This document shows positions 15,282 through 24,619 of a stretch of DNA of 64,000 bases, one piece after another. Every line of letters begins with the position of its first letter. Position 1 is the first letter of the stretch. Source of the stretch: Nitrosospira sp. Nsp11 (lineage in GTDB: Bacteria; Pseudomonadota; Gammaproteobacteria; Burkholderiales; Nitrosomonadaceae); NCBI RefSeq assembly GCF_900142705.1, contig NZ_FRBV01000001.1:310001-374000 (forward strand), in the 5' to 3' direction. A program made the position numbers and the translations under genes. Under the pieces are notes generated by a model. It had not been told where the DNA came from, made no database searches, and saw only the letters and a list, made by a program, of their open reading frames with translations.

Positions 15282-15569
15282 CTAGTCGTGCGTAAGCGGC
15301 GTCTCAGTGAACAGATACTCTTTCAGCTCGGAGGAAAACTTCGCATCCCTACGCCGGATCCATTCCAGCACCATGGAGGCGTGCTCTTTCTCCTCATCAC
15401 GATTATGCATGAGAATGGCCTTGAGCTCCTCATCCTTGCACGCGTTTACACGCTGGTTGTACCAATCGACAGCCTCCAGCTCTTCCATCAGCGACACGAT
15501 TGCGCGGTGCATGTCCCTCGTTTCATCGGACAACTCTTCAATAGGCTCATGGTAACCAACACTTGACAT
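15282..15569 (-). CDS. Encapsulated-ferritin-like protein (EncFtn family), no targeting tail
   Basis: This 95-residue two-helix ferritin-like protein closely follows EncFtn. It has HRAIVSLMEELEAVDWYNQR and HNRDEEKEHA, and ends in EYLFTETPLTHD. The metal and ferroxidase residues of the family align with Glu29/Glu30, Trp36, Tyr37, Glu60 and His63. EncFtn oxidises Fe(II) inside encapsulin shells. The C-terminal extension and loading peptide of known cargo are missing, and no encapsulin gene is nearby. I chose the ATG at 15569 because GGGAG sits 7 bases upstream. The TTG at 15593 adds eight residues with no ribosome site. The gene is monocistronic. Confidence 0.85.
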   Translation of the reverse strand: MSSVGYHEPIEELSDETRDMHRAIVSLMEELEAVDWYNQRVNACKDEELKAILMHNRDEEKEHASMVLEWIRRRDAKFSSELKEYLFTETPLTHD

Positions 15570-16410
15570 TGCTTGCTCCCTTTTTGTGGACAATAAATTT
15601 CAATATTGGATGCTTTTATTGGTTCAGGTGAGATTTTCTGCGGCCATCGCTATGTTAGCAAGTGATGCTGTGGCTGGGACCTTACAGATCACCGTTGTGT
15701 AATCATGTAAGCCATACCCCAGTTCCATGCCTGGATTGGGCTAAGTCGAACTAAGTTTAACAGAACCGCATGTTACAGCTAGAGAGACGTCGACCTTTTG
15801 CCGGGCCATTTTCCAATGACCTGGTTTTTATCCTGTACAGTTTAAAGAAGAGTGAGCACGCCATCACAGATGGTACGCGATGTTGGTATCGAGTCGCCCG
15901 GATTAGCCGTATGGAAATGTATCCCCTACGCGCTCTACTTTGCCAGAGAATTACCGCAGCGGGGAGGAAATCTGACAGGCAAATCCTTGGAATTTTCAAG
16001 GCGTATGTTGGGGTAAGGCACAATTCCAACATTTCGTGCTGCTCAAACATTCGAGTTCCATTCGTCACGCCAATGTACGGAGATTGGACCCAAGTAGGTC
16101 GGGCTACGCCCGACGATCGAAGGAATGATGTCGGGCATAGCCCGACCTACTTGCTCAAAATTTAGCGTAACACGCGCTGATGCGTACGCTACGACCGTTG
16201 ATACCCAATCGATGCTTCTATCCTTCTATCAAGCTATCCCGTCTCGGCCCTATGTGTTTTACCGCACAGTATGAGCCGCAATCATGGTGTTAATCTGATA
16301 ACTCTTGCCGCTTGGTATCTGTAGCCGCTGATAACTCTAATGTTGAGAATATCAATGCCGGCTACTCCGTGAGCAAGCAATATTTAGATTTTTTGATAGG
16401 AGATTCAATC
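15570..16410. other. Intergenic stretch without a recognisable gene
   Basis: About 840 bp between the EncFtn-like gene and the CsbD-like gene. Open frames here (for example ~15757-16068 on the minus strand and ~15770-16165 on the plus strand) have no recognisable domains or ribosome sites and overlap one another. The only clear structure is the inverted repeat at 16091-16153. Decayed sequence or an unrecognised small RNA cannot be excluded. Confidence 0.5.
16091..16153. repeat. REP-like hairpin, 23-bp inverted repeat
   Basis: Arms at 16091-16113 and 16131-16153 (core AAGTAGGTCGGGCTACGCCC) are reverse complements with one mismatch and a 17-bp loop. The sequence type, a GTAGGTCGGGCTACGCCCGAC palindrome, is a common dispersed intergenic repeat in proteobacteria. 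No adjacent gene makes it an obvious terminator. Confidence 0.8.
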
Positions 16411-16707: not shown

Positions 16708-16818
16708 GCTCGCCAGTTTGCCGAACGGGAGAACCATTACCTGTGGGGCAGGCGCTATCCGCTGTCCATTGTTGAGAAAGACGCAAAGCCCGCCGTGAAC
16801 ACTGGACCATTTATCTGA
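16708..16818 (+). pseudogene. Fragment of a YgjP-like (M48/DUF45) metallopeptidase
   Basis: In frame from 16708 the sequence reads ARQFAERENHYLWGRRYPLS, then IVEKDAKPAV, and stops at 16816-16818. FAERE-HYLWGRRY is the start of the conserved region of YgjP-like zinc metallopeptidases, which often accompany type I restriction systems. The HExxH catalytic part is absent, so this is a ~36-residue remnant. It lies between the CsbD terminator and the Wadjet genes, at the left edge of the island. The family match is from memory of the motif. Confidence 0.5.
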
Positions 16819-17079
16819 CAGTTTTCTTTCGAAATTTCTGACAGCCGGGTGCGTCGGAAGAAATTCGCTCGGTTATTTGCCCTAAATTAGGCGGGATTCC
16901 ATGCTACTCGGAGCGAGAACTTGCGGCAGACTTGAGCCTCTCAAGCTGCTCAGGTCGTTCGCATCAAGCGAGAGCAAGAGTTTTGGAAATAAATTGCCGG
17001 ATTGCCCAAGACCGATTCCGAGCTTATACCGGCTGTGCCCGAAAATTTGTCCAAACAAAAGTATGCATTGTGCGGTTTG

Positions 17080-18318
17080 CTATCTGGCGGCATCGGGATG
17101 AAACTCGAAGAATGGCCACCGTGAAAGCTTAGGTCGTCCCAGAGATTCCTGTTCAAAATCTCCTTTGTCATCGCTGGTTACGAAGGCCTCGAGGTGAGGT
17201 CGGACATCTTCCAGAAATGGATCCGCAAGCAAGTTTGGAAGGACGGATCGGTCAAAGTCAGTGAGAGAAGTAGGAGAATTCCGTTCTCTCCGAGCCATGA
17301 GAAATGGAGTAACAGGACGCTTAATTGCTTGCCTGAGCTTTGAAAGGATGAGAAATCCCGCTGGGTCAGTGTCGCCAAAGTGGAATACTGGGATATCTGC
17401 AGGCAAGAGCTCAAAGAGGCGGACAAGACCGCGTGTTGGATATGCGCAAGCTACCACGAGGGTGTCCTTGGCTAGGTTGAGGGAGGCGATTCTACGAAGC
17501 GTAGTTTTTGTATTCTCGACTGTCAGCACTCTTTTGGCAGGAGTTTCTGCTTTGAGGGCAATCATGAGATCTGAGGTAAGGTGATAGCTGCTTCTTAGTT
17601 CATTAATTAGTTGTGTGCGCTCGTTCGCAAACTGAAGCAATAATTGACCGGCTATTTCGATCCTAGGCTGACTCCCGGCAATACCCAGCATTTCAAATGT
17701 GGCCACTCGACCAAGCATTGACGCCAAACAGGCTTCGATAAGACGCTGAGATCTCTCAAGATCCTTCGTTGCGAGGCCAAGATCCACGCTCGCTTCGCGT
17801 ACAAGAGTATCTGGCGGCCATGATTTAGCTGAGATCTGGAATGTGATCCTCAACAGCCGTTCGAAGAGGACGGGGTGACGCCACGATAGAGGGCGAATTC
17901 GACTACCTGATACGAACGCATCTTCAATGCGTTTGAGCCAGTCGGACCATGAGTCGGGAAATAAAGGATGTTGCAATGCGGAAGCCCTCCGCACGTGTTC
18001 CAAGCTCTGATTCAGGATTTCATCCGGGCTCTGCGAGGAAAACAATTGACGAAGCCATTTTTCCGAATTGAACGGTACGGTCACGCGTTCGATGAGATAG
18101 GGACGGTAATCATTGCACTTGAGAGCTAGCTTTCCATCGGTTTTGAGTTTCCGGGCTTCCCGTGCGGCAGTGTTAATATCGTCCACCTTGATGATACCAG
18201 CAGCGTCCAAAAGCTCATCCCACTTCCTATGGTATGGTCTTGACCAAGAGCCAAGCTTATTCCCGCGAGAGGAAAACCACTGACGGTAAAGCTCGGTAAG
18301 CCAGTCTGGAGGGCTCAT
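17080..18318 (-). CDS. jetD: Wadjet component JetD (Toprim-like nuclease)
   Basis: This 412-residue protein is the predicted DNA-cleaving subunit of a Wadjet anti-plasmid system. The C-terminal domain has the Toprim-like set of JetD: Glu268 in TVENTKT, then HFGDTDPAGF with Asp316 and Asp318. The N-terminal half (~1-250) is basic and helical, and would bind DNA or the SMC complex. Known Wadjet complexes recognise closed circular DNA by loop extrusion and JetD cuts it. The start at 18318 overlaps the jetC stop by 4 bp. It is the last gene of the operon; downstream DNA (16819-17079) holds no recognisable gene. The Wadjet subtype was not assigned. Confidence 0.88.
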   Translation of the reverse strand: MSPPDWLTELYRQWFSSRGNKLGSWSRPYHRKWDELLDAAGIIKVDDINTAAREARKLKTDGKLALKCNDYRPYLIERVTVPFNSEKWLRQLFSSQSPDEILNQSLEHVRRASALQHPLFPDSWSDWLKRIEDAFVSGSRIRPLSWRHPVLFERLLRITFQISAKSWPPDTLVREASVDLGLATKDLERSQRLIEACLASMLGRVATFEMLGIAGSQPRIEIAGQLLLQFANERTQLINELRSSYHLTSDLMIALKAETPAKRVLTVENTKTTLRRIASLNLAKDTLVVACAYPTRGLVRLFELLPADIPVFHFGDTDPAGFLILSKLRQAIKRPVTPFLMARRERNSPTSLTDFDRSVLPNLLADPFLEDVRPHLEAFVTSDDKGDFEQESLGRPKLSRWPFFEFHPDAAR

Positions 18319-21300
18319 GAAAGTGCCTCAATGAGCTGAATCCGATCAATCTTTGTGCACCAATTACGGATGCCGGTGACATTTCCGTTTTGATCGTCAT
18401 AGATCCTATCGACTTTCGCTTGTACCACCGTCTCCGCATAATGAATCATGGTAGGGAGCCTATCTTCGGGGAAGGCCATTACCAGTTGCAGACCAAAGTT
18501 TCGGGCGAGCGCGAGGCACGCATCGATCCGATCGCCCGAGAGCTTCGAAAAAGCTTCGTCCATAATAACAAGGCCGAGATTCTGGCGCTGGTCCTTTTTC
18601 CCAAGGTTATATACCCGCTGGAAGGCGGCGAGCATGGCGACAAAGAAGGGGGCTTGATTTTCACCGCCACTTTGCTTTTTTGCACTCTTGTTAAGTGAGA
18701 TTGAGGAGCCTTCACCTCGACCTATGGGAGTTGCTCTGATATCCCAATGATGATAGTAGCGGTAATCTAGGGCCTTTTGATACCGCGGATCCTCCGTGTT
18801 CTCGATCGCAACCATGAGGGCTTGTTTTGCTCGCTCAATGTCGTCCTTACCGCCAGCAGCGAAGAGCTCCATCGCGGGATTGAGCCCTTTATCTACCAAC
18901 GTCCAGATGGCGCTGTGTGTACGATCCGCCCGCATGGAGAGTTGGTAGCGAATGCCCCCGATTTCGTGATCCATGGCACGGTTCAGCTCTTTCTTGGTGC
19001 GCTCGGCTTCATCGAGTTTGTCCTTCAACACGTCGAGCACTTGATGCTGTAAACGATCTTCCCATTGCCGCTGCGCGTCCTCCGCCTCAATGCGATAACG
19101 TTCCAGTTCGTGCTCTTCCAGCGAGCGGCAACGGGTTTCGTAGCGTGTATTTTCATCGTCCGCAGAATCAAAGAATTCTGCGGTTTCGCGATGAGTCTCG
19201 GTCAATGCGGCTCGCTCAGTGTTACGCCGATCAAAAGCCTTCTCTGAATCATGGCGTCGGGCATAAGCGGCGGCGGTAGCAGCTTCCACACGCTGGGACC
19301 ATTTCGGGAATTGTTGCCGTGCGGATTCGATCTTCTCTTCGATCTCAGCCTCTCTGATATTTCTTACCTGCTCGCGGCTGCCTTGGCGTTCCCGCAGGGA
19401 CGCTTGTTCATTTTTCGCGGCACTTTCAATGCCCTCGAGCAGTTCGCGCTGCTGCTGATCGAATTTCGAAATCGCGCCAACCAGCCCGCCTATTCGCTCG
19501 ATGACACCCTGAAAGGTTTTTTCCAGTATTTGTAGCTTCGCTACCGTGGCCTCACGCTCAGGCGTGGCCAACAGGCTGATGGTTTTATCGAGATCCCGCG
19601 CTTCCTTCGTTAGGTGGGGCAGGTTCCGCAGACGGAAGGTGTCAAAAGGTGGGTCTGGCTGGTTCAAGTACCACAGTTCCCCGTTCAGGATCCACTGCTT
19701 CCAAATACTCCGGGGCTGCTTGAGTTGCGCCAGTTCCTTCCTGACCGTCTCCAGTTCTGCTTCGCGAAGCCCCTGCAGGCGGCGACGGCCCTTCTCGCCG
19801 ATGGTGAACTCTTTCGAGGGTGTGAGATGCAGCCGATGAGGCGGGTCTTTAAGCCAACCATCCTTGGACAGGGCACAAGGATACTCGTCCAATTGACTGG
19901 CGTTTTCTACGGCGATCATGTTGCCATAGAGATGCCTCAGATAGGCGGTTGCAGTCGATAGCGACGCCTCAAAGAGTTCTGCAATGCTGTTGTCGCATGC
20001 CTTCTTTGTCGCGATGAGTTCACCGGGATTTACCAGACGCTCATCGATGTGACCAAGACGCTGAGCCTGTTCCCAGGCGGCTGCGAAATCTTCTGCCAGA
20101 ACGGCCTGCCGATTCGGTCCCAGGAGAGTCTCCAGTAGTGGCCACCAAGATTCTGCTTCGGGTCTGACTTCAATCACCCGCCCAAGAGCAACCGCTTTCT
20201 GCTCATGTGAGTGCAAAGCATCCAGCAAAGGCGATGCCAAGATACTGCCTTTACGCACGAGTTCATCCAGATCGCGTTGCAGCCGCAGTTCCTTAGCTTT
20301 CAGATCTCCGATCTTCTCCTCAATGGGGCGCAACTGGTCGTTTCCTTGCGTTTTCAGGAGTTGATGAATCTGCGCCATGCGTGAGGCGGCATCTAACGCT
20401 GGTGCCTCTTCCACATCCTGCATCTGCTCCAGCCACTCGAAAGCCTGCTCAGGTGCCTTCAGTCCCAGGTCGCCGGCTTGCCGGAGCCACTTCTTCCAGT
20501 TATGCGAGCGATCATAGAGGAACTGCTGTGCCGTCTTCGCGGCTTCCTTTAGCGCGTCCAACTCCCGGCCCACCTCATCACGACGGGCGCGGCTCTTGGC
20601 TAGTTCGGCAATCTGCGAATCACCGCCCGCGATCAGGCGCACGTCGTTGAGTTCCCGCTCTCTTTCGTTCCGCTCGGCGACGGCCTCCTCATAAGCCGCA
20701 CGATCTGTCGCCTTCTGTTGATGAAGACGTTCGAGCTTAGCGCGACGGGCCTCCAACTCCTCACGTTTTTCCTCATGAGTTAGTGCATCACGCAGATGCT
20801 CAAAGAGCACCGCTTCTAGCCGTGCAGCCAGGTAAGTCGTATGATGCTCACAGATGCGCACGAGACGCTGATGCTGATCATGCATGGAGTCCAGCCGCGC
20901 CTTCGCCCGGCGATGCGCATCTACACTGGCACGCACTGCTTTCACATCCGGCAGGCCTGGCTCCAGTAGGTATTCACGAATGAATTTCTCGAAGCTTTCC
21001 ACCGGCTGAAAGGCCATGGAATTCGGTAAAGTTTTATTCATCTGAATGCGATCGAAACCCAGATGACTGCGTGACCCCATCTCATCCAGATAGGTCGCCT
21101 GACGATCCCATACTTCACCATCCAAATCCCGCCGCACATGCACACGGAATTCATCCTCAGCTAGAAATCCTAGCGCATTAGCAAGGGGTTGAGCGGATAG
21201 AAAGTCATCTTGCTGCAGGCGCCCCGGTACGCAGAACCATAGAGTACGTGGCTTCGCGGAGGGTCCCTCGTATTCGATGCGGGCGCCCCACGTTTCCCTG

Positions 21301-21635
21301 CGCGGCTCAGCTCCATCGGATGCGGCAGGCCAAACGAACTCTAATGCAGCCACAGTTACACCACTAGGGCGTAGATAACGCTCTTGGCCGTCCTTGCCTA
21401 CGGTATTCGTGTCACAGAGACAGTATCCCCGCAGAGTACGTCCGCTGCCCGCGCCGGCGGCGGCTTTGTTGAAGCGGCTTAGGGACTCCCCCAGCATGAC
21501 GAACTGCAGCAGATCCAATAGTGCGCTCTTCCCGGAACCATTGGCCCCGGTGATAAGAGTGAGACCGGAGACATCAATGAAGTCCCGATAACCGTACCAG
21601 TTGATGGCAATGATGCGACTGAGGTGAACACGCAT
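18315..21635 (-). CDS. jetC: Wadjet component JetC (SMC-like ATPase)
   Basis: This 1106-residue SMC/MukB-like ATPase is the motor of the Wadjet complex. Walker A is GANGSGKS (residues 30-37). The ABC signature lies in SGGENQAPFF (from 989) and Walker B in LVIMDEAFSKL (Asp1026, Glu1027). Between them is ~900 residues rich in charged heptads (REELEARRAKLERLHQQKAT and similar), a long coiled coil interrupted by a central hinge-like segment at ~450-640. It starts 10 bp after jetB and overlaps jetD. The intact Walker, signature and acidic residues argue for an active ATPase. Confidence 0.93.
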   Translation of the reverse strand: MRVHLSRIIAINWYGYRDFIDVSGLTLITGANGSGKSALLDLLQFVMLGESLSRFNKAAAGAGSGRTLRGYCLCDTNTVGKDGQERYLRPSGVTVAALEFVWPAASDGAEPRRETWGARIEYEGPSAKPRTLWFCVPGRLQQDDFLSAQPLANALGFLAEDEFRVHVRRDLDGEVWDRQATYLDEMGSRSHLGFDRIQMNKTLPNSMAFQPVESFEKFIREYLLEPGLPDVKAVRASVDAHRRAKARLDSMHDQHQRLVRICEHHTTYLAARLEAVLFEHLRDALTHEEKREELEARRAKLERLHQQKATDRAAYEEAVAERNERERELNDVRLIAGGDSQIAELAKSRARRDEVGRELDALKEAAKTAQQFLYDRSHNWKKWLRQAGDLGLKAPEQAFEWLEQMQDVEEAPALDAASRMAQIHQLLKTQGNDQLRPIEEKIGDLKAKELRLQRDLDELVRKGSILASPLLDALHSHEQKAVALGRVIEVRPEAESWWPLLETLLGPNRQAVLAEDFAAAWEQAQRLGHIDERLVNPGELIATKKACDNSIAELFEASLSTATAYLRHLYGNMIAVENASQLDEYPCALSKDGWLKDPPHRLHLTPSKEFTIGEKGRRRLQGLREAELETVRKELAQLKQPRSIWKQWILNGELWYLNQPDPPFDTFRLRNLPHLTKEARDLDKTISLLATPEREATVAKLQILEKTFQGVIERIGGLVGAISKFDQQQRELLEGIESAAKNEQASLRERQGSREQVRNIREAEIEEKIESARQQFPKWSQRVEAATAAAYARRHDSEKAFDRRNTERAALTETHRETAEFFDSADDENTRYETRCRSLEEHELERYRIEAEDAQRQWEDRLQHQVLDVLKDKLDEAERTKKELNRAMDHEIGGIRYQLSMRADRTHSAIWTLVDKGLNPAMELFAAGGKDDIERAKQALMVAIENTEDPRYQKALDYRYYHHWDIRATPIGRGEGSSISLNKSAKKQSGGENQAPFFVAMLAAFQRVYNLGKKDQRQNLGLVIMDEAFSKLSGDRIDACLALARNFGLQLVMAFPEDRLPTMIHYAETVVQAKVDRIYDDQNGNVTGIRNWCTKIDRIQLIEALS

Positions 21636-21645
21636 ATTACAATAA

Positions 21646-22275
21646 TCAGTTAGGAGTTTCGATCAATGCAGGCTGATAAACCGCGACCCGGGTCAGCCAG
21701 GTCTCAATAGAGTCAAAAGGAATCGTGCGGGCTAGACTGGGCAGGATTTCAATCTGCATTTCGCCAATGGGTGCAGTCGGGTCATTACGATAGGTGCGGA
21801 TTAGGCGGTTGCGCTTCATCCGTGCGAGAAGCTGCTCCAATTGCGTTTTTTCCGGCGGCTCAATGTTCTCAAAGGTCGCTTTGAAGCGCTGCCAGAGATC
21901 GTCCACCGTGAGCACCACTGTTTGCTCGGCGCGAGTATTGCGATGGTCATCCCAGGCGCGCCATAGCACGAGCAACAGCAGCGTTTCGTCCTTTGTGAAC
22001 TGGGCCAGTAGCAGGCAGACTTCCGGCCGCGGCCGCGCCTGGAGCAGAGAAAAATCGTCATCCACGATGAGTTCCAGCCCCAGTGGAGCGAGGTAGTCCG
22101 TGATGTGGGCCTGATAGTGATCTCGAGCCAGCAGGAAGAGATCTCGCCCGCTGCCTTCCGTGCCCAGCAAGGTGCCCCGCCCGAGAAGCTCGGCCAGAAC
22201 TTCCCGCAGAGGAGCGCGGTCAGCCTCAGGAACATCTGGCCAGAAACGAGGCCAATGGGGATCAGAATCACTCAT
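21646..22275 (-). CDS. jetB: Wadjet component JetB (MukE-like)
   Basis: This 209-residue acidic protein has the size and position of JetB (DUF4194 family), the MukE-like winged-helix subunit that sits on the kleisin. Visible segments include REVLAELLGRGTLLGTEGSG, DDDFSLLQARPRPEVCLLLA and LARMKRNRLIRTYRND. The last looks like a winged-helix recognition region. It overlaps jetA by 4 bp (ATGA) and is 10 bp before jetC. Identification rests largely on operon position and the general family pattern, since no catalytic residues are expected. Confidence 0.85.
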   Translation of the reverse strand: MSDSDPHWPRFWPDVPEADRAPLREVLAELLGRGTLLGTEGSGRDLFLLARDHYQAHITDYLAPLGLELIVDDDFSLLQARPRPEVCLLLAQFTKDETLLLLVLWRAWDDHRNTRAEQTVVLTVDDLWQRFKATFENIEPPEKTQLEQLLARMKRNRLIRTYRNDPTAPIGEMQIEILPSLARTIPFDSIETWLTRVAVYQPALIETPN

Positions 22276-23750
22276 GCGTAGCGGGTAATGGTGAAACGCT
22301 CAATGTGCCAGTCAAATTGCTTGTCCCGCGGGATCGCGGTCACCTCCAGCCCGTCTTGGCGGCGTGGGCCGTCGACCTCCCAGCGTACCACGCGACCGTC
22401 CGGCATAGTGGCCTGCTCGTAAGCCGCGGTAGCCAGCAGATCCAGAAGGTCATCGATCGAGGCAGAAACCACATTGTCCGTGCCAGCGGTAACGGCCACC
22501 TTATCCATAAGACGCGCAACGAGGCGGGCCGCTCTCTGCGGAGTCAGTGCTAGACGTTGCCGCTCCTTGAGCGCCGCGAGATCGGCCTCTGCGTCATCGG
22601 CATGCTCTTCTGCCAGACTGAAGGTAAGATTGGCAGCGGCACGGCCACGGCGGGCACGAGCGAGCGATTCGATCCCGTAGAAAAAGCGGACCTCGGGCAC
22701 CAGCGGAGTGTAGTCCGGCTCCTCATCCCGCAGCGTGCCGATCTTGCAGCCGAGGTGGAGGGCATTAACAGCATCGCAGTAGGATTTCACGATCTCCGGG
22801 CGGCGACCGCGCAGTTCCGTTTGGTAGGTATAGCGCTGCTGAGAGAGACGGTTGAAGCTGGCCATGCGGGAATCGATGGCATCCGCAACGAGGCGGATAG
22901 ACGCTAGACCGTGCTCTAGATCGCGCAGGGCCGTATCCGCCCGCAAGTAGGATTCCTCCACCAGCCAGCCGTAGTGCGCCGAGAGTCCTTCTGCTAAGCG
23001 CTCCTTGGCCATAGGAAGGTCCCGCACTTTGGCCACTTTTCCGCGCACAGCTTGCAGGCGCGGAAGCAGACCGTTTCTACGAAGTGCATCGTAGCAGACC
23101 ATATGCTGCCCGGAGCCGAACTCCTCATAGAGCAGCCGTAACGTTTCTGCGGGAGACTTGCTGGCCCGCTGCCGTTCGTCGAAGATGGAGATCAGCTTCT
23201 CAACGCCGTGAAGCTGGATTACGGCGCTCTCCAAACGTGCATTGAGATCAGTGACCGTGGCGCGGAGCTCATCTGGCGTTCGTATCAGGGCATCCAGCGC
23301 TTCCTCCCGTTCCAGAGTCTCGCAGACACCGCGAACAGTATCTGCGAACGTGATGAGTTCTGCGATTTCCTCTTCCGCCAGTTCTCTCAACAAGCGGAGT
23401 AATTGGCGCAGCCCGGGCGATACCAAGACCAATCGCTCGTGCAACCCCAATTGCTGATCTTCCACCCAACCCGCTTCGCAGAGGCGGTTAAATATCTGGC
23501 CTGCGCGCTGCCGGGTATCCCGTAGGAACGCTCCCTCATCTTCAGCAAGCTGAATCTCAGGATGAGCGGCTAAGACCTCTCGAACCAGCGCAATGACATC
23601 CGTTTGAGGAATGCTTCCAGCATCACCCGCTGCATCGGCAATGCGATCTGCACAGTCGATATAAACGCCAGCAGAGCGACGTGAAAGCGGCCGAAAAAAA
23701 CCCCTCGGAACTGAGCTGAGTAAACGATGACTGAGAGGAGGGTTGACCAT
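22272..23750 (-). CDS. jetA: Wadjet component JetA (kleisin, MukF-like)
   Basis: This 492-residue protein is the first gene of the Wadjet operon. Its N-terminus has a winged-helix-like segment (QIFNRLCEAGWVEDQQLG), then long helices and a C-terminal part ending DGLEVTAIPRDKQFDWHIER. This is the layout of the JetA kleisin that bridges the SMC heads. The N-terminus (VNPPLSHRLLSSVPRGFFRP) does not look like DUF3375, the JetA type of Wadjet I as I recall it. That points to another Wadjet subtype, not assigned further. The ~70 bp upstream is AT-rich and probably carries the operon promoter. Adjacent to it on the other strand lies a recombinase remnant. Confidence 0.85.
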   Translation of the reverse strand: MVNPPLSHRLLSSVPRGFFRPLSRRSAGVYIDCADRIADAAGDAGSIPQTDVIALVREVLAAHPEIQLAEDEGAFLRDTRQRAGQIFNRLCEAGWVEDQQLGLHERLVLVSPGLRQLLRLLRELAEEEIAELITFADTVRGVCETLEREEALDALIRTPDELRATVTDLNARLESAVIQLHGVEKLISIFDERQRASKSPAETLRLLYEEFGSGQHMVCYDALRRNGLLPRLQAVRGKVAKVRDLPMAKERLAEGLSAHYGWLVEESYLRADTALRDLEHGLASIRLVADAIDSRMASFNRLSQQRYTYQTELRGRRPEIVKSYCDAVNALHLGCKIGTLRDEEPDYTPLVPEVRFFYGIESLARARRGRAAANLTFSLAEEHADDAEADLAALKERQRLALTPQRAARLVARLMDKVAVTAGTDNVVSASIDDLLDLLATAAYEQATMPDGRVVRWEVDGPRRQDGLEVTAIPRDKQFDWHIERFTITRYA

Positions 23751-23844
23751 AGAGTCTCTGAAAATCAGAGTAATTTCTCCACGTATATTGATTTATCCGA
23801 AAGATTAACAATATTGCATATTATGCCATTCACGCAACCTTCTG

Positions 23845-24453
23845 TTGACTTACCTTTACTACGCCTGCAACAACGTCAGCAAGGACGGCATAGGTGCTAC
23901 TTGCACATTGCTGAATATTCCGGCACGAGCAATGGACGATTGCGTCCTACAGATCATCGGAGAAATCGGGCGACACACGGATGTCATCAAAGCTGCCATC
24001 ACTGCCTCTAATGAAGAGAAGAACAAATCGCTGCGCCCTCTCAAATCGAAGTTGACTCAATTCCAGCGTCGTCATACCGAGTTAAGCGAGAAGTTCCAGC
24101 GCTACCTCAAGCTCGTCCGCAAGACCGATTCCGAACATTTCGGACAGGAAATGTTGGCAGCCGCCGAGAATCTGGCCAAACAAAAAAACGAACTGGAGCA
24201 GGAGATCGAGAGAGTCAAAATCGACATCGCCTATCGTGAGCGTGTCGTGACGAACGAGAAGGTCATCGCCAATGCTTTGTTAACCTTTGAACAAGCCGTG
24301 AAAGTGCTACCCTTCGACGACCAACGGAAGTTGCTTCACCTCTTGTTGCAGCAGATTCGAGCTAACCGCCTTAACCCGGAAAAGGAGCTGCTTCCTGCCG
24401 ATTCACAGACTTGGAATATCCAAATACGATACGAACTCGCTGGTATACGGTAA
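23845..24453 (+). pseudogene. C-terminal remnant of a large serine recombinase
   Basis: A 202-residue open frame starts (TTG) with LTYLYYACNNVSKDGIGATC. This resembles the end of the recombinase zinc-ribbon domain with its paired cysteines, followed by IPARAMDDCVLQIIGEI. Residues ~60-160 form a strongly charged coiled coil (KSKLTQFQRRHTELSEKFQR; LAKQKNELEQEIERVKIDIA), as in the C-terminal arm of large serine integrases. The N-terminal resolvase domain with the catalytic serine is absent: upstream DNA runs straight into the jetA promoter region. It is probably a relic of the element that brought the island. It could still be translated, but not as an active integrase. Confidence 0.7.
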
Positions 24454-24529
24454 ATTTAGACCTTCATGCAACTGGCTTGGTTTCAGGAAGTTGCGCAAAA
24501 CGCGATTTGAGTTCGCATTTGAAACAAAA

Positions 24530-24619
24530 TGGCGGAGGCGGTGAGATTCGAACTCACGGTAGAGTTGCCCCTACGGCAGTTTTCAAGACTGCTGCCTTAA
24601 ACCGCTCGGCCACGCCTCC
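24530..24619 (-). tRNA. tRNA-Ser (anticodon UGA)
   Basis: On the minus strand the cloverleaf starts GGAGGCGUGGCCGAGCGG. It has a class II long variable arm, a TpsiC segment GAGUUCGAAUCUC, and a 3' end CGCCUCC-G-CCA with CCA encoded. The anticodon loop CUUGAAA places UGA at 24585-24583, reading UCA and related serine codons. The 3' end faces the recombinase remnant and the Wadjet island, a common arrangement for integrated elements. No second copy of the tRNA 3' end was found at the far side of the island. Confidence 0.96.

What the first reader, a model, noticed from the sequence alone, without database searches (positions are those of the whole stretch)
17080..24619. Complete Wadjet (JetABCD) anti-plasmid system on a tRNA-Ser-linked island
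The sequence shows four contiguous genes with 4-bp overlaps or a 10-bp gap. The JetC-like ATPase has intact Walker A, signature and Walker B, and the JetD-like protein keeps Glu268, Asp316 and Asp318. The set is flanked by a metallopeptidase fragment on the left and a recombinase remnant plus tRNA-Ser on the right. Established knowledge is that such systems use an SMC loop-extruding complex and a Toprim nuclease to cut circular plasmids. That this one is active and was acquired horizontally is inference.
Basis: partly seen in the sequence, partly recalled or inferred. Interest (0 to 1): 0.7.

Follow-up and report, generated by a model that had tools for sequence, protein, structure and literature searches.

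The report
Plasmid-cutting Wadjet system borrowed across phyla
An ammonia-oxidising bacterium carries a complete four-gene Wadjet system, a known kind of machine that finds and cuts invading plasmids, and the closest relatives we found all lie in a different phylum, the Verrucomicrobiota.

Summary
Four intact genes, jetA-jetB-jetC-jetD, lie on the minus strand at the stated coordinates, and each hits type I Wadjet models. JetD keeps its metal-binding and proposed nucleophile residues, and its predicted fold matches solved JetD. It is an ordinary member of a known kind. Activity is untested.

The new part is the origin. A scan of 84,980 species genomes with JetC gave 41 loci, all Verrucomicrobiota (best Haloferula: JetC 74%, JetB 84%, JetA 75%, JetD 55%). 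Trees of all four proteins join the window to Haloferula and one Akkermansiaceae genome. The host is an ammonia oxidiser by its AmoA, and 1 of 23 genomes of its genus has a JetD domain. So the operon most likely moved as a unit between phyla. Its host-like GC3 suggests this was not recent.

The "tRNA-Ser island" is only partly shown. The tRNA is a hotspot in the genus, but no att repeat and no intact integrase ties this operon to it. The recombinase is a remnant without a close relative in what I searched.

The parts
22272..23750 (-). jetA, kleisin-like subunit (492 aa)
   Evidence: PADLOC JetA1 7.4e-11; Pfam JetA PF18982 48.9 bits; 74-75% identical to Haloferula JetA
21646..22275 (-). jetB, KITE-like subunit (209 aa)
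   Evidence: PADLOC JetB1 4.3e-15; Pfam DUF4194 78.3 bits; 81-84% identical to Haloferula JetB
18315..21635 (-). jetC, SMC-like ATPase (1106 aa)
   Evidence: PADLOC JetC1 8.5e-122; Walker A, SGGE, Walker B; profile match to solved JetC 9qxt 7.3e-24 and 8as8 1.7e-22
17080..18318 (-). jetD, Toprim nuclease (412 aa)
   Evidence: PADLOC JetD1 5.7e-17; JetD_C 42.9 bits; E268, D316, D318, E389, E391 invariant in 24 of 24; model pLDDT 86.8, Z 14.7 to P. aeruginosa JetD 7til
23845..24453 (+). C-terminal remnant of a large serine recombinase, between jetA and the tRNA
   Evidence: partial CcrB match 5.9e-7, 28.5 bits, far below the cut-off of 900; no relative in 124 other family genomes, 397 other genomes of a phylum sample, 22 verrucomicrobial genomes (no positive control), plasmids or viral contigs
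24530..24619 (-). tRNA-Ser(TGA), ancestral copy, integration hotspot of the genus
   Evidence: ARAGORN; 89-90 of 90 bases identical in 9 of 22 relatives
17007..17061 (+). possible second recombinase remnant beyond the end of jetD
   Evidence: local alignment to 24120-24186: score reached by 2 of 1000 shuffles, 0 of 1000 Markov sequences and 0 of 330 other window pieces; tblastn E 0.013, 14 of 36 residues, with a stop in the frame. Suggestive only
16708..16815 (+). possible YgjP-like metallopeptidase fragment
   Evidence: Pfam PF01863 E 0.082, below cut-off

Best explanation
The four genes are a complete type I Wadjet (JetABCD) plasmid-defence operon that an ammonia-oxidising bacterium acquired as a unit from the Verrucomicrobiota. 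Most likely mechanism, as established for other type I systems: JetC (SMC ATPase), JetA (kleisin) and JetB (KITE) form a dimer-of-dimers that extrudes DNA loops. On a small circular plasmid the two motors run out of DNA and meet, which releases the autoinhibited JetD dimer so that its two Toprim sites cut the plasmid. Shown here: gene content and order, intact frames, intact ATPase and Toprim motifs, JetD fold, verrucomicrobial kinship, absence from the rest of the genus. Inferred: expression, complex formation, plasmid cleavage, direction of the transfer and how the operon arrived.
For: Profiles; motifs; JetD fold; JetC profile match to solved JetC. 41 of 41 confirmed loci from a scan of 84,980 species genomes are Verrucomicrobiota, with the same gene order where the contig holds the genes. 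Trees of JetC, JetD, JetA and JetB each put the window in a supported set of three with Haloferula and Akkermansiaceae RYN_631. Full-length JetC is in 1 of 125 host-family genomes and JetD_C in 1 of 23 genus genomes. The operon sits inside a 631,898-base contig whose flanks match the closest relative. Of residues invariant in Verrucomicrobiota the window keeps 59 of 65 (JetD), 173 of 179 (JetA), 67 of 68 (JetB) and 394 of 419 (JetC). Mechanism: passages of PMC10586767 and PMC10123090.
Against: No activity data. The window's JetB lacks the IFDR motif that the review reports at the JetB N-terminus as a JetD contact. PDB profile searches with JetA and JetB found only chance-like hits, the JetA model was poor (pLDDT 58.6), and JetD found no solved JetD by sequence. 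The window keeps somewhat fewer conserved residues than Haloferula does in a leave-one-out count (65 of 68, 179 of 181, 68 of 69, 419 of 435). The nearest relatives are only 74-75% identical in JetC, so the direct donor is not known.
Confidence: 0.8

Rival explanations
1. The operon is intact in sequence but no longer functions as a defence (not expressed, or subtly broken).
For: It is found in one genome of 23 in the genus amid recombinase debris. JetD is the most divergent subunit (55% to Haloferula) and has the lowest GC3 (0.496).
Against: All four frames are open, the catalytic residues are kept, and most invariant residues are kept despite host-like codon composition. JetD is also the least conserved subunit between Haloferula-clade and other verrucomicrobial operons.
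Confidence: 0.15
2. It works mainly as a chromosome-organising SMC complex, like MukBEF/MksBEF, with plasmid cutting secondary.
For: Some verrucomicrobial genomes hold jetABC with intact JetC motifs but no JetD that the profile finds, so the core may have a use without the nuclease.
Against: The window keeps jetD, with all Toprim residues, in the same operon. jetC is absent from the other 22 genomes of the genus, which is unlike a housekeeping gene. Most of the jetD-less genomes are incomplete metagenome assemblies.
Confidence: 0.1
3. The transfer ran the other way, or both lineages received the operon from an unsampled third group.
For: The nearest known JetC is only 74-75% identical. Codon composition already fits the host.
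Against: The window nests in a diverse verrucomicrobial clade in trees of all four proteins. 21 of 195 genomes drawn from Haloferula's family have a JetC match of 60% identity or more (at least nine of these were already known). One host genome of 125 has it.
Confidence: 0.12
4. The operon is cargo of an element that integrated at the tRNA-Ser.
For: Homology to relatives stops at the tRNA 3' end wherever their loci reach that far; tyrosine integrases lie beside the same tRNA in two relatives; other DNA fills the same interval in G001.
Against: No tRNA-derived repeat at the left border. No intact integrase. The recombinase remnant is of the serine type, while the neighbours' integrases are tyrosine type. 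This concerns the route only and does not compete with the function.
Confidence: 0.45

Closest known systems
Type I Wadjet (JetABCD) of Pseudomonas aeruginosa PA14 and Escherichia coli GF4-3
   Same: Four subunits, type I models, JetC matches solved JetC chains 9qxt, 8as8 and 8dk1, JetD fold matches 7til
   Different: Low sequence identity (8dk1 JetC found at E 1.9e-08 by single sequence; JetD not found by sequence). No IFDR in JetB; instead an N-terminal D-P-x-W-P-R-F-W stretch shared with small variants by the verrucomicrobial relatives
Verrucomicrobiota jetABCD operons, nearest Haloferula sp. BvORR071 (L077)
   Same: Same order; JetA 75%, JetB 84%, JetC 74%, JetD 55% identical; sister or near-sister in all four trees
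   Different: Different phylum; GC3 0.73-0.83 in Haloferula against 0.50-0.64 in the window; no window-type recombinase found in 22 of these genomes
MksBEFG of Corynebacterium glutamicum (MksG nuclease, 8b7f)
   Same: JetD fold match Z 12.8, 329 residues, rmsd 12.3; acidic, E-x-E, Arg and Lys positions in the same order as E236/D279, E349/E351, R156/K166 described for MksG
   Different: The correspondence is by order and spacing, not by superposition; Tyr258, proposed as catalytic in MksG, was not traced
JetD_C-bearing loci in the sister genus (g3) of the host family
   Same: JetD_C domain in 15 other genomes of the family
   Different: 12 of those 15 score 179-194 bits and three 28-57, against 45 for the window; window JetC matches only two of the family's other genomes, over about 70 residues. 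These are separate systems

Membership tests
Wadjet (JetABCD), type I | Four adjacent genes in the order jetA-jetB-jetC-jetD | tested here: met
Wadjet (JetABCD), type I | Each protein matches its Jet profile; type I models best | tested here: met
   (JetA1, JetB1, JetC1, JetD1 best; a JetC2 model also hits, at 6.2e-12)
Wadjet (JetABCD), type I | SMC-type ATPase with Walker A, signature and Walker B | tested here: met
Wadjet (JetABCD), type I | JetD with Toprim metal-binding acidic residues and JetD/Topo VI-A fold | tested here: met
Wadjet (JetABCD), type I | JetA kleisin fold | tested here: inconclusive
   profile hits met; structure model poor, pLDDT 58.6; no PDB relative by sequence
Wadjet (JetABCD), type I | Restricts small circular plasmids through ATP-dependent extrusion and JetD cleavage | not testable with these tools
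   needs experiment; literature passages only
tRNA-integrated genomic island | Intact tRNA gene at one end | tested here: met
tRNA-integrated genomic island | Direct repeat of the tRNA end at the far border | tested here: not met
   best match no better than shuffles (300 of 500 reach it)
tRNA-integrated genomic island | Own integrase gene | tested here: inconclusive
   serine-recombinase remnant only
tRNA-integrated genomic island | Different content at the same tRNA in relatives | tested here: met

The most novel reading that the evidence does not exclude
Type I Wadjet has a branch centred on Verrucomicrobiota that behaves as a separable module. It has its own JetB N-terminal motif in place of IFDR. 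Some of its lineages keep JetABC but lose JetD, so the SMC core may serve without the nuclease. The full set can be exported across phyla and stay intact. The window would be the only non-verrucomicrobial holder found so far, and would show that the module works in an unrelated host.
Probability: 0.25. Interest if true: 0.55.

Novelty: new member of a known kind. Interest (0 to 1): 0.38.

Why it matters
Wadjet limits the uptake of small circular plasmids, so a working copy could affect plasmid uptake, and perhaps genetic manipulation, of an ammonia oxidiser (inference). It is also a well-supported case of a whole SMC defence operon crossing phyla, with four subunits that must fit each other moving together. 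In the held open-access library two papers contain both 'Wadjet' and 'Nitroso' and six contain 'Wadjet' and 'Verrucomicrob'. I saw only their listings and opened none of them; no title or abstract start there mentions such a transfer.

Tried and rejected
Contaminant contig: rejected. The operon lies inside a 631,898-base contig whose left flank (to 16705) and right flank (from 24581) match G001.

tRNA-derived att repeat at the left border: not found.

Recombinase as a vehicle from Verrucomicrobiota: no relative in 22 verrucomicrobial genomes (records of 22 of the 41 loci were given, which had no positive control), in 72,556 plasmid records, in viral contigs (8 pattern matches, none confirmed), in the host family (own genome only, of 125) or in a sample of the host phylum (own genome only, of 398).

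Operon on plasmids or viruses: 7 plasmid records hold a distant JetC (22-31% identity), none with one place covering 80% of the query. Viral contigs: 2 pattern matches, none confirmed.

Structure and PDB: JetA model poor, so not searched. JetA and JetB profiles hit only a flagellin (0.0035) and a ribosomal protein (0.017), taken as chance. JetD single sequence: no hit. JetD profile: topoisomerase VI A subunits, no JetD. Fold comparison did find JetD.

Rows left out before counts: JetC tree, window plus 40 of 46 extracted proteins (800 aa or more). JetD tree, window plus 31 of 33 (350 aa or more). JetA 32 of 33 and JetB 33 of 34. Alignments used for conserved residues held the window plus 23 of 33 JetD, 21 of 33 JetA, 16 of 34 JetB and 12 of 46 JetC. 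The JetC, JetA and JetB trees are 'quick' trees with long outgroup branches, so their roots are unsure. The grouping of the window with Haloferula and RYN_631 does not depend on the root.

The JetC scan used six exact 8-residue peptides, so it favours near relatives. It cannot exclude more distant holders in other phyla, and records of the window's own genome may have been left out.
Full report
OBSERVATION. All four hit type I Wadjet models in PADLOC and Pfam families over their curated cut-offs. JetC carries Walker A (residue 30), SGGE (989) and Walker B (1023). tRNA-Ser(TGA) is at 24530-24619, minus. The recombinase fragment 23845-24453 matches part of the CcrB model weakly. The left metallopeptidase fragment is a sub-threshold YgjP-like match over 26 residues.

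JETD. In an alignment of the window's JetD with 23 relatives, E268, D316, D318, E389, E391, R174 and K185 never vary. By order and spacing these fit the MksG residues E236 and D279 (metal binding; mutants drastically impaired), E349 and E351 (proposed nucleophiles) and R156 and K166 (proposed DNA contacts) in passages of PMC10123090. I did not superpose the structures residue by residue. The AlphaFold model (pLDDT 86.8, pTM 0.57) matches topoisomerase VI A (1d3y, Z 16.3), P. aeruginosa JetD (7til, Z 14.7, 332 residues, rmsd 6.9) and a C. glutamicum nuclease (8b7f, which I take to be MksG; Z 12.8, rmsd 12.3). High rmsd would fit hinged two-domain proteins.

MECHANISM. It is taken from the literature and not shown here: JetABC is thought to extrude DNA, and JetD, autoinhibited until total extrusion of a small circle, cuts it (passages of the review PMC10586767). 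That review reports an IFDR motif at the JetB N-terminus that contacts JetD. The window's JetB and 34 of 34 extracted JetB relatives, one of them truncated at its start, lack IFDR. The verrucomicrobial clade and the window instead share an N-terminal D-P-x-W-P-R-F-W stretch with small variants. It is also present in loci without jetD, so I do not assign it to JetD docking.

ORIGIN. A scan of 84,980 species genomes with the JetC sequence gave 51 pattern matches, of which 41 were confirmed as relatives, all in records titled as members of Verrucomicrobiota (the 41 loci are not all from different genomes, e.g. L090 and L114). The nearest is Haloferula sp. BvORR071: JetC 74%, JetB 84%, JetA 75%, JetD 55%, in the same order. 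The window groups with Haloferula and Akkermansiaceae RYN_631 in trees of JetC (SH-aLRT 100), JetD (bootstrap/SH-aLRT 99/98, and 100/99 with Haloferula alone), JetA (99) and JetB (96). Of 195 genomes drawn from Haloferula's family, 49 have a JetC match. In 21 of them it is at 60% identity or more, the best full-length match at 75%. In the host's class 10 of 369 genomes match, the own genome included; the others match at 22-46% identity over all or part of the protein.

HOST. The own genome has one AMO match. Its AmoA matches the solved 'Ammonia monooxygenase subunit A' 9pxf over 273 residues at E 2.3e-189, with five differences by my count of the printed alignment. I take the host to be a betaproteobacterial ammonia oxidiser, probably Nitrosospira.

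PATCHINESS. Full-length JetC occurs in 1 of 125 genomes of the host family; two others match over about 70 residues around Walker A. JetD_C occurs in 16 of 125 family genomes, the other 15 all in genus g3, and in 1 of 23 of the window's genus.

AGE. GC3 of jetA, B, C and D is 0.63, 0.64, 0.59 and 0.50. Five host genes nearby range from 0.57 to 0.66, and Haloferula's jet genes from 0.73 to 0.83. Either the transfer is old enough for composition to drift, or the donor had lower GC. Residues invariant in the verrucomicrobial rows are mostly kept (59 of 65, 173 of 179, 67 of 68 and 394 of 419 in JetD, A, B and C), a little less than in Haloferula's leave-one-out count (65 of 68, 179 of 181, 68 of 69, 419 of 435). 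This suggests continued selection.

SITE. In the closest genome, G001, the left flank is homologous up to window 16705 and the right flank from 24581, inside the tRNA. Between them G001 has about 1.8 kb of other DNA that ends in a different tRNA-Ser (59 of 90 identical), next to the 5' half of the ancestral one. Among the 22 relatives' loci, no homology to the window continues leftward past 24526, where the loci reach that far (a few end before or just after the tRNA). The tRNA-Ser is 89-90 of 90 identical in 9 of 22 relatives, 86 of 90 in one, 59-72 of 90 in seven, and absent from the fetched locus in five. Tyrosine integrases (P4-like, my label) lie beside the tRNA in G003 and G021. The tRNA is therefore a hotspot. 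No tRNA-derived repeat marks the operon's far side, so integration of this operon there is plausible but unproven.

POSSIBLE SECOND REMNANT. A stretch at 17007-17061, beyond jetD, resembles 24120-24186 of the recombinase (2 of 1000 shuffles, 0 of 1000 Markov sequences and 0 of 330 other window pieces reach its score). If real, remnants of related recombinases bracket the operon. The evidence is thin: 14 of 36 residues, E 0.013, with a stop in the frame.

JETABC WITHOUT JETD. Nine verrucomicrobial loci with jetC but no JetD found beside it (besides L090, whose contig ends inside jetC) were followed to their genomes with the JetD profile. Two have a JetD elsewhere and seven have none, while both positive controls rang. 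Most are metagenome assemblies, some with the contig ending near jetC; Luteolibacter pohnpeiensis (L089) is a named strain with more than 9 kb of DNA after jetC. JetC motifs are intact in six of the seven such loci tested; L112 is broken.

VERDICT. Ordinary in kind, well preserved, and notable for its cross-phylum origin.

Noticed in passing
L087, L089, L091, L099, L103, L105, L110, L112, L116: Verrucomicrobial jetABC (or jetC) loci without a JetD beside them; in 7 of these 9 genomes the JetD profile finds none anywhere. Some are incomplete assemblies or contig ends.
   Followed up: partly
L003/L058:2183-2270 (G001), L016, L017, L018 (G004, G005, G006): A different tRNA-Ser(TGA) (59-72 of 90 identical) stands beside a leftover 5' half of the ancestral tRNA-Ser that breaks off in or just before the anticodon loop: apparent replacement of a tRNA gene by an incoming one.
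   Followed up: partly
window 16091-16153: REP-like palindrome (24-nt arms, 96% complementary) with about 15 further places in the own genome and about 16 in G001 among listed matches; few elsewhere in the genus (not all candidates were scored).
   Followed up: no
window 15282-15593: EncFtn-like encapsulated-ferritin gene (Pfam 146 bits) near the island, found in most genus members searched; no encapsulin shell gene was looked for.
   Followed up: no
L093, L095, L096, L098, L100, L106, L109: 0.6-2.0 kb of extra DNA between jetA and jetB in these verrucomicrobial operons (coordinates).
   Followed up: no
L111:8869-10037 and L112:10001-13271: jetD of L111 and jetC of L112 match in two pieces, which suggests frameshifts or assembly errors.
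   Followed up: no
L061:9079-17414 (G003) and L063:16079-17302 (G021): Islands at the same tRNA-Ser with tyrosine integrases; the G003 stretch also holds a TraG/TraD-like coupling protein.
   Followed up: partly
L060:13679-13978 (G004): MqsR-like toxin gene in the same variable interval (Pfam 113 bits).
   Followed up: no
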